DNA of 60,000 nucleotides, taken from the NCBI GenBank assembly GCA_964020155.1, contig OZ026560.1, forward strand, positions 4,306,759 to 4,366,758, in the 5' to 3' direction. Made by a program: the position numbers and the translations under genes. Below, piece after piece: positions 829-60,000 of this stretch; position 1 is the first letter of the stretch; each line of letters begins with the position of its first letter. Below the pieces are notes generated by a model that ran no database searches, had not been told where the DNA came from, and saw only the letters and a list, made by a program, of their open reading frames with translations. The stretch is from Chondrilla cf. caribensis. Lineage: Eukaryota; Porifera; Demospongiae; Chondrillida; Chondrillidae.

Positions 829-1692
829 ATGGAACAGGTTTACATTTACGATCTTTCTCGCCATTTCCCTCCAAAACCGTCTTTTTTGAAGATCGGAAAG
901 GAGATTAACAGAGGAGCTTACGGAGCAGTCTACGAAGGAAAGTTAGGATTGGAAGGTCGTTCGGTGGCTGTTAAAAAACTACATCGCATTCTCCAGGAAG
1001 CTTCTCATGATGAGAGGACAACAGCTTTGTTTGACAACTTCAAGAAAGAATGCATATTGTTGGAGAAAGCGGACAACGACCACGTGGTCCAGTTTCACGG
1101 TGCTTACTACGACGAAGAGAGCCACGAACCGATATTAGTGATGGAGAGAATGCACGAGAATTTGAGCGAACATTTGAGCAATAATCGGGGAAAGTTGAGC
1201 CTCTCGCGTCAGCTTCAAATCTGCTTGGAAATAGCTAAAGGCGTCCACTTTCTTCACTCCCTCGTTCCTCCAGTCATTCATCGCGATTTGAACGACAAGA
1301 ATGTGATGCTCACCAAGGAGGGTCTAGTGAAGGTAGGAGATCTCGGTCAATCTCGTCTGAAAGACGTCAACAAGGATTATTTCAGCACTGGCCAACCAGG
1401 AGCCGTACCGTTCATGCCTCCGGAGGCACTACAAGATACCGCACGCTACAACGAGAAGATCGACACGTTCTCCGTTGGAGTTCTAATGCTGGAGGTAGCT
1501 ACACAGCAAAGCCCACAGGTACGCTTGGTAGGCATCGGTACCACGTCTGAATTGAAGAGGAGAGAGAAGGACCTTGCCAAATTGCCAGCGGACCATCCCA
1601 TGAGGCCATTAATCCTCAACTGCCTGGAAGATAATCCGAAGGAGAGACCAGACATGACAACGTTAATGAAGAAACTCCAGATAATCATTGAA
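829..1692 (+). CDS. Gene 1 exon 1: N-terminal TKL-like kinase, alpha type
   Basis: This is a complete protein-kinase domain of 288 residues in one exon. Visible landmarks are a glycine loop (GAYGAVYEG, about 29-37), the ATP lysine in VAVK (K49), a helix-C glutamate (E74), catalytic HRDLNDKN (D153, N158), DLG in place of DFG (metal-binding D171 kept) and PPE (197-199). All residues needed for phosphotransfer are present. HRDLN-x-K-N rather than HRDLKPxN or HRDLAARN, plus the overall pattern, places it nearest tyrosine-kinase-like (TKL) Ser/Thr kinases; its substrate is unknown. The reading frame runs only five codons past a perfect GTAAGT donor at 1693, so the kinase is probably an exon of the larger gene. 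The start is the first ATG and is shared with gene 3. Confidence 0.85.
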
Positions 1693-2471
1693 GTAAGTAT
1701 CACTTAATGTAGTACCTTTTATCAATAAGCTATTCGTTGACAATGTACCACATGTATTTAGTTAGCTAGCCTCGACCACTCCCTCATTAGTCTGGCCTGC
1801 TACGACCGTCCCATTAGGCGCCTAGAGGGCGTCAAGGGGGAATAGTAATTGGTTAACACATTTAGGTGATTATTCTGAAATGATGATAGTTGTATTGCCG
1901 ACTTCTGTAACGTTTCAAGAGCATAAGCAAAGCTTCTCTCCAATTTGTCATCCATAGCTTCAGTCGATGGTGGATACTTCCTTGATACGTCCTATGTATG
2001 TACTTAGACCTAAAGAACTGAAAGTCATGAATACCATTGCCGCGATTTGGGGTAGTCGAATCTGATTGGTTGTCGAGGTGTTAACCAATTACTATTACCG
2101 CTAGAACATAGAACACCACTTGCCAACAACAAGAAATAGAAACCTACTAGTTGAAAGAGTGGCAAATTTCTTTGAAACTGAGAATTTCGAGTACACAATT
2201 GAAGCAAAGGTATTTATAGCCCTTACCATCAATCAAGTGCTGAAGTTCTAAGACTTGCCATCAGTGGGGGTAGGCATAGGGTCCTATTTCCTGTTGTTAG
2301 CAAGTGGTGTTCCTTCAAACAAGTAATTCGAGTTCAAAAACTTGGGGGGCTGCCGCCCCCGCACTCGAATTACTTGGAAGTCTTTCTTAGGTTCAGAAGA
2401 ATCGGCCATCTTTATATCGCGCAATATAAATTATAATATAAATTCATTGTTGCAGTTACACGTAAGAACAC

Positions 2472-2538
<67 letters not shown>

Positions 2539-56387: not shown

Positions 56388-59300
56388 GTGAGTATTAACA
56401 TAGATCTTCCTATGGTATTAATAATAATAGGGAGCGATGTAGATCGAATGAGTCTTTTCAGAATTTAACACGCTCCACAGTGTACACTCAATTTCGAACC
56501 TACATACCTGATATGTGTTGCTGTCAACGAGCATCTACTTTTCCTCCTTTTATGTACACCTAAACACTAGCTCATTTGCCATACAGCCTGGTATTTGAGA
56601 GTCTCCCATCCAGGTAATGAAATGTCTGAGAAGTCCAATGGGTGACCACATTAGACTCTTAGCTACCAGACTGAGCTGGCTTGTTAGTACTGGGGATGAA
56701 GTTGCCTACACACATCAATGTTCCTGTAATAACTGAGTCAGACATTATTATAGTGATTATGGGGTACTATGTACCTCGACACAGACTGTTGTTGACACCT
56801 CTTATCTGACATACCATGCAGTGCCATATCTGTTTACTGTACGTTGTGAAATGTCCAACGCATTGGAAATGTGATTTTTGAGTGGAACATATAGCAATCA
56901 ATGTAGATAATTCATTTTGTACCATAGTACGTTTTGCCTTTTACATCCAAACTGTTTTGTAACTGGCAAAGACATATGTGGTCTAAACATCCCACATATT
57001 CTTCATGATTGTTATGTAGGAATTCTACACGAAACATTTCTATAATTTAAATTCCTTTGCCATAGCTGTGATCCCCTATGAAATTGTTGTTCTGACAAAC
57101 TTAATGCAAGCACACATTGATTTAGTGATATTGCCCTGTTTGGGTACAAGTACAGCATGCAGTCATGAAAGTTAATAGATATACCATAACGTACTAATCA
57201 GTGTAATTATTGTTCTTTGCCCTCAGTCTTGGCAGGAAAGACAGACTGTGGAAATAGTTGTCAAAAAATGTAAGTTGAAACCAATTTTCGTACAAGGCAC
57301 ATAGTCATTACTTGCAAGTCAACAATCTAAGGTTATCAATATTATGAATGTTGCACTACTGTAGTAAATAAATGATTTTATCAAATTTCAATTAATAATT
57401 ACACACATGCAAATTGATTAAACACTCCATCCTTTATATAACTGTCCACATGTATGCACATCTAAACTCATTCAGGCTATAGTGACTGTATTCCATTATG
57501 CATACTTGCCTCACAGACAGTGTATATATATTTAAAACCAGGTGTCAATTCTACCTTTCTATCATTATTCTATCAGTCCCAGGGCTAGGAGGTTTGGAGA
57601 AATGGATCATTTGCAGGGAGAAGCTGAAAGTCATGGATATATTGAGGAGTGGCCGATATTTTGGCAAGTGTGAACATCATGAATGTAGCCTATATCTGCT
57701 CTCTGCTGTTGTCTAGTGTCACTGATTGCTTGTTCCACCTCTCAGATGTGTTGAGTGGTGAATACAAAAGAGATAAGGTGGAGGTAAAGTCTCTCAAAGA
57801 TGAGTGCAAGGGACTGGAAGACTTCCTGGTGGAGGCCTCCGTCCTGACATCACTGAGCCACCCCAACCTGGTGAAGTTGATCGGAGTCAGTGTGGACCAG
57901 AAACCAGTGTACTTCATCACAGAGTTCATGGAGAAGGGATCTCTGTATGACTACCTCCGGTCCAGAGATAGATCTGTCGTTCAAAAATCACATCAAGCTG
58001 CCTTTGCTCAAGATGTTTGCAGCGGAATGGCTTATCTTGAGCAGAGAGATCTAGTTCACAGGTTTGTTGTGTGTATTGTAAGACATTGTATTGTTATGCC
58101 CCAGAATGTGTGTACTTGTGCATGTAAATTTATATAGTTACATAATATGTCTAGTTCATAGGTGTGTTGTGTATTGTATGTATTGTTATGCCCCAGAATG
58201 TGTGTACTTGTACATGTGAATTTATATAGTTACACAAAAATAAATAATTACATAATATGTCATTTCGTTACTTATGGTCATATACTATTCGATTCATTGT
58301 GGTTATATGGAATCTTAGGTATACATGAATGCCAGCATGCATGTGCTATGTATATAATTACAGTATTAGTGTAATGTTACATAATATTATGTGTAGTGTT
58401 TTTGGCTTTTGGTAAATATTAATGGGGTGTTTTAATTGTGAATATACGTAATGTCTAGGTGATGTTATTATACTGGACCAGGACCAGGTGTGCATAGAGT
58501 GTCAATATGTTGTAATCCTCACCATTATAGAGATATTGCTACAAGGAATGTTCTTTTGTCAGCAGACAATGTTGCAAAAGTCGCCAATGTTGAGTTTGCA
58601 GTGAAAAGGGGAAATATACAGAAGGCCATGGCACTCCCCATTAAATGGACAGCTCCAGAGGCTATCAAATCACGTGTACGTATCCTGAACTACATGCATG
58701 TGTTTAGCTAAGTGTTCTCCTGGGGGAAATCTGGAGTGTTGACGAAACTAAAGAGGACGAAGGCATATCTCAGTTCACAAATTACATCATACAAACTATA
58801 TATACAAGAGAGGGACAAACATCAAACCACCATTCCTGAATTAAACACTGTGATAATAGCTGATCTTATATTCATGTAGCCGCAGTAGTCATTATAATGC
58901 ATTGTATTACTTTGAAATATGTGTGCAGGAATTCTCCAACAAGTCTGACGTTTGGAGTTTTGGTGTATTTCTATGGGAGGTGTATACCTTTGGACGTATT
59001 CCCTATCCACATGTGGTGAGTCATACTGACTGTATACCAATTAACCTACTGCACATACAAGGGAGTTGACCCCATCATGACATACGTAGCTATCTGATGG
59101 ATATATAGACAATATGGTGCATTGTCAATGTAATCAACTATAACCAGTTAGTTTTTTCCAAATGAATTGTTTGTGTTATTGTGTATGGCACCAGTTAGAC
59201 CATTGCCCATTCACTCACACACCAATTGGTGCTCTACAGGCTGGGACCTTGAAGGATATACAGACTTACATCAAGGAAGGAGGGAGACTGGACTGCCCCG

Positions 59301-60000
59301 AGAACTGTCCTCCTGAGGTTTATAAGATCATGAAGACCTGCTGGTATGAGAGACCTGAGGACAGACCAACATTCAAAGAGCTGTTAGAGGAATTGAAAGC
59401 CCTTCCACCCTCAGATGACCATGTATGTTATCCAGCTACCACTCATTTCAGTGTTTTAATGACTAAATATCTCATGACTACCTTGTTGAAAGACTGATTT
59501 TGCCTTCATCTGATTCTTTAGGATGGATATGCACTTACAAGTAAGCCAATACCTACCAGTCAACCAGTACTTATGAGTGATCACTTACCTACAAGTGAAC
59601 CAAAACCTACAAGTGGACGTGTACCTACAAATCAACCAAATATGGCCAAGCATAAACCAGTACCTAGGAGTAAACCACCAAAACCACCTGTTGGAAGAAA
59701 ACCAGTATCTACAAAAAAGACAACTGCTACTGCTACTGGTACATGTACAGTATTACCTGTCAGTGGAGGAAAGGTTAGTAAAACAAATGGATGACTGTAT
59801 CTTGTTTACTACGTGTACTGAGTATGTACTAATGTATACATGTAGTCATGTGTTTCAATAATATGCAAATTTGGGTACATATACATACATGCGTATACAT
59901 TTATGTATATCTGTGTAAATATGCCATAATCATATTGTTACCTTGTGCATGGGGTTCACTGCATATTATATTGTTAACATCACAGTTAAGATCACATTAT
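55527..60000 (+). CDS. Gene 4 (5' part): TKL-like kinase + pseudokinase + linker, runs off the window
   Basis: Predicted exons: 55527-56387, 57227-57269, 57577-57669, 57746-58061, 58531-58675, 58929-59015, 59240-59422, 59522-59773. These total 1980 nt (660 codons), all in phase, and the last ends in a GTTAGT donor, so the gene continues to the right. Domains: TKL-like kinase 1-287, pseudokinase 288-576, Pro/Thr linker 577-660. Exon 2 has the normal six A's, unlike gene 2. By analogy with gene 3, a second pseudokinase or the SH3-SH2-kinase should follow. Confidence 0.75.
56388..57226. other. Gene 4 intron 1
   Basis: Matches gene 2 intron 1 over most of its length. It includes a stretch (56583-56690) that faintly resembles 5S rRNA. 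No exon is seen. Confidence 0.5.
57227..59422 (+). CDS. Gene 4 exons 2-7: Csk-like pseudokinase domain
   Basis: Exons are 57227-57269, 57577-57669, 57746-58061, 58531-58675, 58929-59015 and 59240-59422. SWQERQTVEIVVKK, VEVK, FLVEAS, EFMEKGSLYDYL, HRDIATRN, KVANVEFAVKRG, IKWTAPEAIKSR and CPPEVYKIMKTCWY are visible. NVE replaces DFG, so the metal-binding Asp is missing. It ends in a GTATGT donor after DDH. Confidence 0.8.
59522..59773 (+). CDS. Gene 4 exon 8: Pro/Thr-rich linker
   Basis: 84 residues, the longest of the linkers, starting DGYALTSKPIPTSQPVL and containing RSKPPKPPVGRK (PxxPx(K/R) pattern). It is closest to gene 3 exon 8. It ends in phase 0 at GTTAGT. Confidence 0.75.
59774..60000. 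other. Gene 4 intron, incomplete
   Basis: Resembles 38952-39110 in gene 3 (the intron after linker 1), which suggests a second pseudokinase unit lies just beyond the window. No exon is seen here. Confidence 0.5.

What the first reader, a model, noticed from the sequence alone, without database searches (positions are those of the whole stretch)
829..60000. Tandem array of genes fusing an active TKL-like kinase to Csk-like pseudokinases and an SH3-SH2-kinase
Each gene starts with one exon encoding a complete TKL-like kinase, then continues through in-phase GT-AG exons into one or more Csk-like kinase domains, a PxxP linker and (genes 2, 3) a Csk-type SH3-SH2-kinase. Seen directly: all exon phases match by hand (except one base in gene 2), inner kinase domains end in donors where terminal ones end in SACQP-stop, and no start exon occurs inside a gene. 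From family knowledge: Csk has one kinase domain, and JAKs pair a pseudokinase with a C-terminal kinase; here the competent kinase is N-terminal and of another kinase group. I know of no described protein with this order.
Basis: partly seen in the sequence, partly recalled or inferred. Interest (0 to 1): 0.9.

Follow-up and report, generated by a model that had tools for sequence, protein, structure and literature searches.

The report
TKL kinase fused to Csk pseudokinases
A row of neighbouring genes joins, in one reading frame across introns, a TKL-like kinase to Csk-like SH3, SH2 and kinase-type domains that have lost the DFG motif, so each gene is predicted to make one protein in which a foreign kinase likely rides on a Csk-derived docking scaffold.

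Summary
I rebuilt four genes from 81 exons; 77 of 77 junctions are GT-AG and in phase, with no internal stop. The one-base fault reported in gene 2 was not found. Genes 1-3 encode 1756, 1103 and 1468 aa; gene 4 runs past the window. Exon 1 is a complete TKL-like kinase; the rest is Csk-like.

The array continues on both sides on C15 and includes one ordinary, unfused Csk (482 aa, DFG intact). In five fused genes, 14 of 14 Csk-type domains read lack DFG, including the SH3-SH2-kinase ends. All modules are under purifying selection.

The order recurs. C14 genes put a 78-81% identical TKL exon before Src-type SH3-SH2 kinases without DFG (3 of 3 read). Two C14 frames hold TKL and tyrosine kinase without introns, one with DFG intact. 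Two JGI contigs carry TKL-SH3-SH2 in one frame, joined at the TKL exon boundary.

Best reading: exon capture put a TKL kinase on Csk copies, whose Csk part likely became a targeting scaffold.

The parts
829..17908 (+). Gene 1, 30 exons, 1756 aa: TKL, A-B-K1a, proline linker, A-B-K1b, short linker, SH2-K1c, short linker, SH2-K1d, SACQP-stop
   Evidence: 29 of 29 junctions GT-AG and in phase, one terminal stop
829..1692 (+). Gene 1 exon 1: complete TKL-like kinase, donor GTAAGT, phase 0
   Evidence: Pfam PF07714 1.8e-43; best single-domain PDB match TNNI3K, 96.6 bits
2955..7991 (+). Gene 1 module K1a: exons A 2955-2988, B 4109-4201, 5307-5622, 5950-6094, 6625-6711, 7815-7991; Csk-like, NVE for DFG, degenerate G-loop
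8367..8528 (+). Gene 1 proline-rich linker exon
9207..11291 (+). Gene 1 module K1b, Csk-like, NVE for DFG
11380..14396 (+). Gene 1 short linker 11380-11525, SH2 11850-12324, kinase-type K1c 12569-14396 (DVQ for DFG)
14485..17908 (+). Gene 1 short linker 14485-14630, SH2 15835-16313, kinase-type K1d 16532-17908 (NFH for DFG), stop
19720..29003 (+). Gene 2, 18 exons, 1103 aa: TKL, A-B-K2a, proline linker, SH3-SH2-K2b, SACQP-stop
   Evidence: 17 of 17 junctions
19720..20574 (+). Gene 2 exon 1: TKL-like kinase (DFG intact)
   Evidence: (model pLDDT 86.9)
21573..23613 (+). Gene 2 module K2a, NVE for DFG
23729..23923 (+). Gene 2 proline-rich linker (TKPPKPPISRK)
25352..29003 (+). Gene 2 SH3 25352-26233, SH2 26578-27041, kinase 27288-29003 (DFR for DFG)
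   Evidence: Csk 1k9a_A 504.8 bits over residues 3-459 of 467
29617..54856 (+). Gene 3, 25 exons, 1468 aa: TKL, A-B-K3a, linker, A-B-K3b, linker, SH3-SH2-K3c, SACQP-stop
   Evidence: 24 of 24 junctions
29617..30480 (+). Gene 3 exon 1: TKL-like kinase
31384..38607 (+). Gene 3 module K3a, NVE for DFG
38721..38951 (+). Gene 3 first proline-rich linker
39381..42174 (+). Gene 3 module K3b, NVE for DFG
42290..42484 (+). Gene 3 second proline-rich linker
44036..54856 (+). Gene 3 SH3 44036-44912, SH2 45268-45736, kinase 45982-46433 and 54108-54856 (DFR for DFG)
46434..54107 (+). Intron of gene 3's last kinase, holding two long antisense frames (46727-50788 and 51462-54188, minus strand)
   Evidence: RVT_1 1.3e-24 for the first frame; the second was not scanned
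55527..59773 (+). Gene 4, first 8 exons: TKL 55527-56387, A-B-K4a, linker 59522-59773; continues to C15:4381005 outside the window
   Evidence: part of the stretch just after the window reads N

Best explanation
The window holds a tandem array of genes whose exons join, in phase, an N-terminal TKL-like kinase to Csk-derived SH3, SH2 and kinase-type domains that have lost the DFG motif, and each gene is predicted to make one protein in which the TKL domain is likely the only working kinase and the Csk part likely a docking scaffold. Origin (inferred from shown pieces): an ordinary Csk gene was duplicated. In the copies, a TKL exon with a phase-0 donor took the place of the Csk start exon, which also ends in phase 0, with the break inside Csk intron 1. 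Later duplications added one or more Csk-type kinase modules and proline linkers between TKL and SH3. Function (inferred): SH2 and SH3 would bring the protein to the phosphotyrosine and proline sites that Csk itself uses, the DFG-less kinase modules would hold the Csk substrate (a Src-type kinase or its partners) without phosphorylating it, and the TKL kinase would phosphorylate the captured partner. The protein would thus rewire or compete with Csk control of Src-type kinases.
For: Fusion. 77 of 77 in-window junctions are GT-AG and in phase, with no internal stop. TKL exons end in a phase-0 donor in 7 of 7 array copies whose end could be read (g1-g4, U1, U2, D1); in U2 a 6-nt insertion before the donor keeps the phase. 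Relatives: of 37 listed database hits at 60% identity or more, 35 show donor read-through by a proxy (VS or VR within 17 residues of the end; some of the 37 are this genome's own copies, P0121 and P0130 the window's). The other two, P0149 and P0164, run on into SH3 and SH2 in one frame from the same residue. C14 has two contiguous TKL+TK frames, 595 and 564 aa. Capture: the Csk start exon matched once in the array region, while the 3' part of its intron 1 lies before four of four fused SH3 exon sets at 81-97% identity. Selection: dN/dS 0.17-0.32 for TKL (15 pairs), 0.14-0.37 for the inner modules (21 pairs), 0.15-0.45 for SH3-SH2-kinase (6 pairs). Scaffold: DFG absent in 14 of 14 Csk-type domains read in the five fused genes, present in the one unfused Csk, absent in 3 of 3 C14 Src-type units read. 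TKL keeps G-loop, VAVK, HRDLNDKN, D(L/F)G and PPE in g1-g4, U2 and D1.
Against: No RNA or protein from this genome was available. P0149 and P0164 come from unnamed JGI contigs that I could not open; both end where the SH2 donor would be read through, so they may be partly spliced RNA or genomic DNA. Four of 14 Csk-type domains keep the D (DVQ once, DFR three times), and HRD is kept in 14 of 14, so residual activity is possible. One of the two contiguous C14 TKL+TK frames (564 aa) keeps an intact DFG in its TK part, against a strict rule that a fused TK loses DFG. One array member (U1) has a damaged TKL (VTVQ, HRH), so TKL activity is not kept in all. In listed relatives below 60% identity only 42 of 83 show the donor read-through. 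Docking to Src or Csk partners is inference only.
Confidence: 0.6

Rival explanations
1. Two genes per unit: the TKL exon is its own short gene ending some codons past the donor, and the Csk-like exons are transcribed separately.
For: The TKL frame stays open only 4 to 52 codons past the donor and then stops. The 120 listed database relatives have a median length of 316 aa, that is, they are predicted as free TKL proteins.
Against: Conserved phase-0 donors; exon A needs an upstream phase-0 exon and holds no ATG; Csk start exon absent from the fused copies; contiguous TKL-SH3-SH2 and TKL-TK frames elsewhere. Poly(A)-type signals did not help: none in 400 nt after 4 of 4 TKL stops, but also after only 1 of 3 gene ends.
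Confidence: 0.08
2. True dual kinases: the DFR end kinase still works, so TKL and Csk activities act in cis as a two-step switch, with only the NVE modules as pseudokinases.
For: g2, g3 and U2 end kinases keep VAIK, HRD and the D of DFG; HRD is kept in 14 of 14 units. The 564-aa C14 frame keeps DFG beside a TKL part. P0007, P0008 and P0072 show that TKL-like and TK domains can share a chain.
Against: DFG is changed in every fused Csk-type copy read and kept in the unfused one. g4 ends in HFY and g1 in NFH. U2 also has a broken G-loop (IGRDEFKEV).
Confidence: 0.22
3. A decaying pseudogene array with no product.
For: U1 has a damaged TKL; fragments exist at C15:4381489 and 4387184; D1 has an odd donor and HRN and was not resolved. 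A 7.7 kb intron with retroelement frames splits gene 3.
Against: Four complete frames of 1103-1756 aa with no internal stop (g1, g2, g3, U2), g4 open in both parts read, dN/dS well below 1 in all modules.
Confidence: 0.04
4. Assembly error joined TKL and Csk pieces.
For: Tandem repeats are error-prone; I could not see reads.
Against: Separate C14 loci show a TKL exon before tyrosine kinases; P0149 and P0164 show the order in other assemblies.
Confidence: 0.03

Closest known systems
Csk (C-terminal Src kinase), SH3-SH2-kinase
   Same: The end module of gene 2 matches Csk end to end (1k9a_A, 504.8 bits; next best 334.9). An intact 482-aa Csk heads the array.
   Different: Csk has one kinase and no TKL domain. 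Fused copies lost the start exon and DFG and gained TKL, inner kinase-type modules and proline linkers.
JAK family (FERM-SH2-pseudokinase-kinase; recalled)
   Same: Pseudokinase and kinase in one chain with SH2.
   Different: Here the likely active kinase is N-terminal and TKL-like, the pseudokinases are C-terminal and Csk-derived; no FERM was seen, though none was searched for.
Plant tandem kinase-pseudokinase proteins such as wheat Yr15 (PMC6170490; title and start of abstract seen in a search listing only)
   Same: Kinase plus pseudokinase in one chain.
   Different: No SH3 or SH2 there (recalled); only an analogy.
TNNI3K and other TKL kinases
   Same: TNNI3K is the best single-domain solved match of the first exon (96.6 bits), sharing HRDLN.
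   Different: TNNI3K has ankyrin repeats (recalled), not Csk modules.
P0007, P0008, P0072: unnamed database proteins with TKL-like then TK domains
   Same: TKL-like kinase first, TK domains after, in one open frame.
   Different: TKL part only 33-35% identical, TK parts 35-40% identical to the gene 2 end; no SH2 by Pfam in P0007 and P0008.

Membership tests
Csk family | SH3-SH2-kinase order, Csk as nearest solved relative | tested here: met
   Order in genes 2, 3, 4 and U2 ends; gene 2 end: 1k9a_A 504.8 bits over residues 3-459 of 467
Csk family | Intact catalytic motifs including DFG | tested here: not met
   0 of 14 fused Csk-type domains read have DFG; the unfused Csk0 has it
Csk family | Single kinase domain, nothing N-terminal of SH3 | tested here: not met
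   TKL and one or more kinase-type modules precede SH3
Csk family | Phosphorylates the Src C-terminal tail | not testable with these tools
   Needs a kinase assay
TKL kinase group | Nearest kinases by sequence are TKL | tested here: inconclusive
   TNNI3K, CTR1, MLT/ZAK, roco4 and BRAF rank high, but a two-domain EGFR chain tops the list by summed score and WNK and NEK7 also score; fold search gives BTK, BRAF, NEK7, LIMK2 among the best 50. Group labels are recalled
TKL kinase group | Complete catalytic motifs | tested here: met
   G27, K45, HRD 148-150, N155, D(L/F)G 168-170 (gene 2 numbering) present in the window TKLs; across 36 aligned sequences K45 in 32, D150 in 33, D168 in 35
JAK family | FERM-SH2-pseudokinase then C-terminal active tyrosine kinase | tested here: not met
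   Order is TKL first and the last kinase lacks DFG; FERM itself was not searched for
Plant tandem kinase-pseudokinase proteins | Kinase plus pseudokinase in one polypeptide | tested here: met
   By predicted frame and motif only
Plant tandem kinase-pseudokinase proteins | Common descent with the plant proteins | not tested
   Used only as analogy

The most novel reading that the evidence does not exclude
One mobile first exon carrying a whole TKL kinase has been captured by both partners of the Csk-Src pair in one genome (C15 Csk array, C14 Src-type array). In each array the tyrosine kinase then lost its catalytic DFG, so that the regulator and its target have both been turned into address labels for an unrelated kinase: kinase replacement by exon capture.
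Probability: 0.4. Interest if true: 0.87.

Novelty: new variant of a known kind. Interest (0 to 1): 0.74.

Why it matters
Csk control of Src-type kinases is held to predate animals (PMC8662651, passages seen). A genome that keeps one normal Csk beside a row of copies in which another kinase has been spliced on and the Csk active-site motif lost gives a natural experiment on how kinase domains become scaffolds and how kinase groups are rewired. It can be tested directly: RNA reads across exon 1, and activity of TKL versus DFR kinase. The repeated, phase-matched first exon also shows a simple genetic route by which new kinase fusions may arise.

Tried and rejected
Direct joining of the TKL exon to the first N-lobe exon fails in phase (0 to 1). 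Comparing the six intervening regions revealed exons A and B. My first models of the last CAT exons of genes 2 and 3 started two bases early and gave stops; the acceptor two bases on fixes this. The U2 TKL donor looked absent at the aligned end; it lies six bases further. Poly(A) signals did not separate the models. A single-sequence fold of TKL failed (pLDDT 35.7); with 36 sequences it reached 86.9, but the fold search does not assign a kinase group. P0001-P0006 from the first protein search are multi-kinase chains without a TKL match. U1 and D1 were not modelled in full, and the C14 SH3-SH2 genes were read exon by exon, not assembled. Six paper searches showed, in titles and starts of abstracts, no protein with TKL before Csk SH3-SH2-kinase; one paper was seen in passages. 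The sponge genome paper cited there was not looked up.

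
Full report
WHAT WAS CHECKED. The window lies at C15:4306759-4366758, plus strand, of an unnamed 137.0 Mb genome in 37 contigs. A search of the window with its own pieces found four TKL-type exons and ten Csk-type kinase units in order. Exon ends were read from splice sites conserved between copies. Joining TKL directly to the first Csk exon is out of phase, and the reason is two small exons. Exon A (34 nt, phase 0 to 1) and exon B (93 nt, phase 1 to 1) are present in the six window modules that follow a TKL exon or a long linker. 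With them, 81 exons form four genes; 77 of 77 junctions are GT-AG and in phase and no stop falls inside. Genes 1 to 3 are complete: 1756, 1103 and 1468 aa. Gene 4 gives 657 aa to the window's end.

EXONS STAND OUT FROM INTRONS. Mean identity between copies is 0.89 for TKL, 0.89 for exon A, 0.81 for exon B, 0.84 for the N-lobe exon and 0.94 for the first SH2 exon, against 0.43-0.71 in flanks. The proline linker does not stand out (0.59 against 0.57-0.61). dN/dS (Nei-Gojobori, my script) is 0.17-0.32 in 15 TKL pairs, 0.14-0.37 in 21 pairs of inner modules and 0.15-0.45 in 6 pairs of SH3-SH2-kinase ends. So all three parts are under purifying selection.

THE ARRAY BEYOND THE WINDOW. On C15:4256759-4446758 (parts masked) the same exon types continue on the same strand; no minus-strand match passed 1e-4. 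At the head lies an ordinary Csk, C15:4274493-4278943: 11 exons, 482 aa, start exon MSLRPAKKCPRATA ending in phase 0, DFG intact. Next come U1 (TKL, SH3 remnant, SH2, kinase), U2 (complete, same plan as gene 2) and a TKL exon cut off by masking. After the window, gene 4 continues with a DFG-less kinase unit, a 694-aa linker made mostly of EPVPT-type repeats, SH3, SH2 and a last kinase with HFY, ending SACQP. Then follow fragments and D1 (TKL, SH2, kinase). In a whole-genome search with the gene 2 end module, listed hits off C15 are 27-50% identical, and none of them reaches the SH3 part (only the best candidates are scored there); the C14 array does carry a weaker SH3.

HOW THE JOIN AROSE. The start exon of the unfused Csk has no second match in the array region. 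From about C15:4274859 on, the rest of its intron 1 is found before four of four fused SH3 exon sets (U2, genes 2, 3, 4) at 81-97% identity. That places a break inside intron 1. Start exon and TKL exon both end in phase 0, so replacement keeps the frame. TKL exons end in a phase-0 donor in 7 of 7 array copies whose end could be read; U2 has a 6-nt insertion before its donor that keeps the phase.

INDEPENDENT SIGHTINGS. (1) C14, minus strand: three genes read, each with a TKL exon of 78-81% identity (one in two pieces about 600 bases apart), a phase-0 donor, a PxxP linker, SH3 exons (the third not found in one gene) and SH2-kinase of Src type; for the unit tested the nearest solved chains are Src, 266 bits. 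DFG is EFS, NFS and NFS, and one unit has HRN for HRD. Splice phases there were read by eye; the genes were not assembled. (2) C14:1621764-1619980 and about 1618636-1617065: TKL and a Src-type kinase in a single open frame of 595 and 564 aa. DFG is NFG in the first and intact in the second; the second goes against a strict rule that fused TKs lose DFG. (3) Database: of 37 listed hits with 60% identity or more to the TKL exon, 35 show a donor read-through at its end by a proxy (VS or VR within 17 residues); some of these are copies from this genome, P0121 and P0130 from the window. The other two, P0149 (475 aa on a 1975-nt JGI contig) and P0164 (434 aa, 1824 nt), continue from the same residue through a short linker into SH3 (66-69% identical to gene 2's, 57% to the C14 type) and the first SH2 exon, then stop as if the next donor were read through. 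Below 60% identity 42 of 83 show the donor. (4) P0007, P0008 and P0072 carry a TKL-like kinase (33-35%) before TK domains in one frame. A search for long proteins by TKL words alone listed no close full-length relative of gene 2 (best 120 of 584 shown, best 37% identity); the search with the first 500 residues gave none either (best 120 of 2897, candidates capped).

CATALYTIC STATE. Window TKLs keep G-loop, VAVK, HRDLNDKN, D(L/F)G and PPE. Across 36 aligned sequences K45 is kept in 32, HRD's D in 33, the DFG D in 35. The 14 Csk-type domains read in the five fused genes all lack DFG: NVE seven times, DFR three, DVQ, NFH, NFY and HFY once each. Three partial copies also lack it: NFH, NFF, NFY. 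The modules with exon B in addition have a degenerate G-loop (LRSGRYFGK or LRSNHYIGK for IGKGEFGE). U1's TKL has lost the lysine and the HRD aspartate.

MECHANISM. Shown: order, phase, selection and motif loss. Inferred: one protein per gene, TKL activity, loss of Csk activity, docking. I take the Csk part as an address label that brings a TKL kinase to Csk's partners and would compete with the one true Csk found. I put about 0.9 on the fusion proteins being made and about 0.6 on the whole reading.

NOVELTY. Kinase-pseudokinase chains are known (JAKs, recalled; plant tandem kinases, search listing only). A 2021 survey of holozoan tyrosine kinases gives SH3-SH2-kinase as the core of Csk, SrcM, SRM and Src-Aque1; the 12 passages seen mention no TKL partner (PMC8662651). 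Six paper searches showed no description of this order in titles and starts of abstracts. Hence a new variant of a known kind.

Noticed in passing
window 46727-54188, minus strand: Two long open frames (1353 and 908 aa) lie antisense inside one intron of gene 3; the first is a reverse transcriptase by Pfam, the second looks alike by eye. The matching intron in gene 2 is 369 bases.
   Followed up: partly
C15:4371707-4373788 (locus L010): Gene 4's second linker is a 694-aa open exon made mostly of EPVPT-type repeats, against 54-84 aa in the window's other long linkers.
   Followed up: partly
window about 25071-25389 and 43635-44151: A minisatellite of about 30 bases (open in several frames) sits before the SH3 exons of genes 2 and 3 and in the unfused Csk's first intron.
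   Followed up: no
G000 contigs C3, C5, C20, C10, C6, C23: Large clusters of TKL-type kinase frames, mostly 300-500 aa; whether they too are first exons of fusions was not read.
   Followed up: no
L020 and L019 (C14:1617014-1621764, minus strand): Intronless TKL plus Src-type kinase frames in which TKL stands where SH3-SH2 normally is.
   Followed up: partly
P0241 (database protein, 1426 aa): A chain of about five TKL-like kinase domains, the last one closest to the window's TKL.
   Followed up: no
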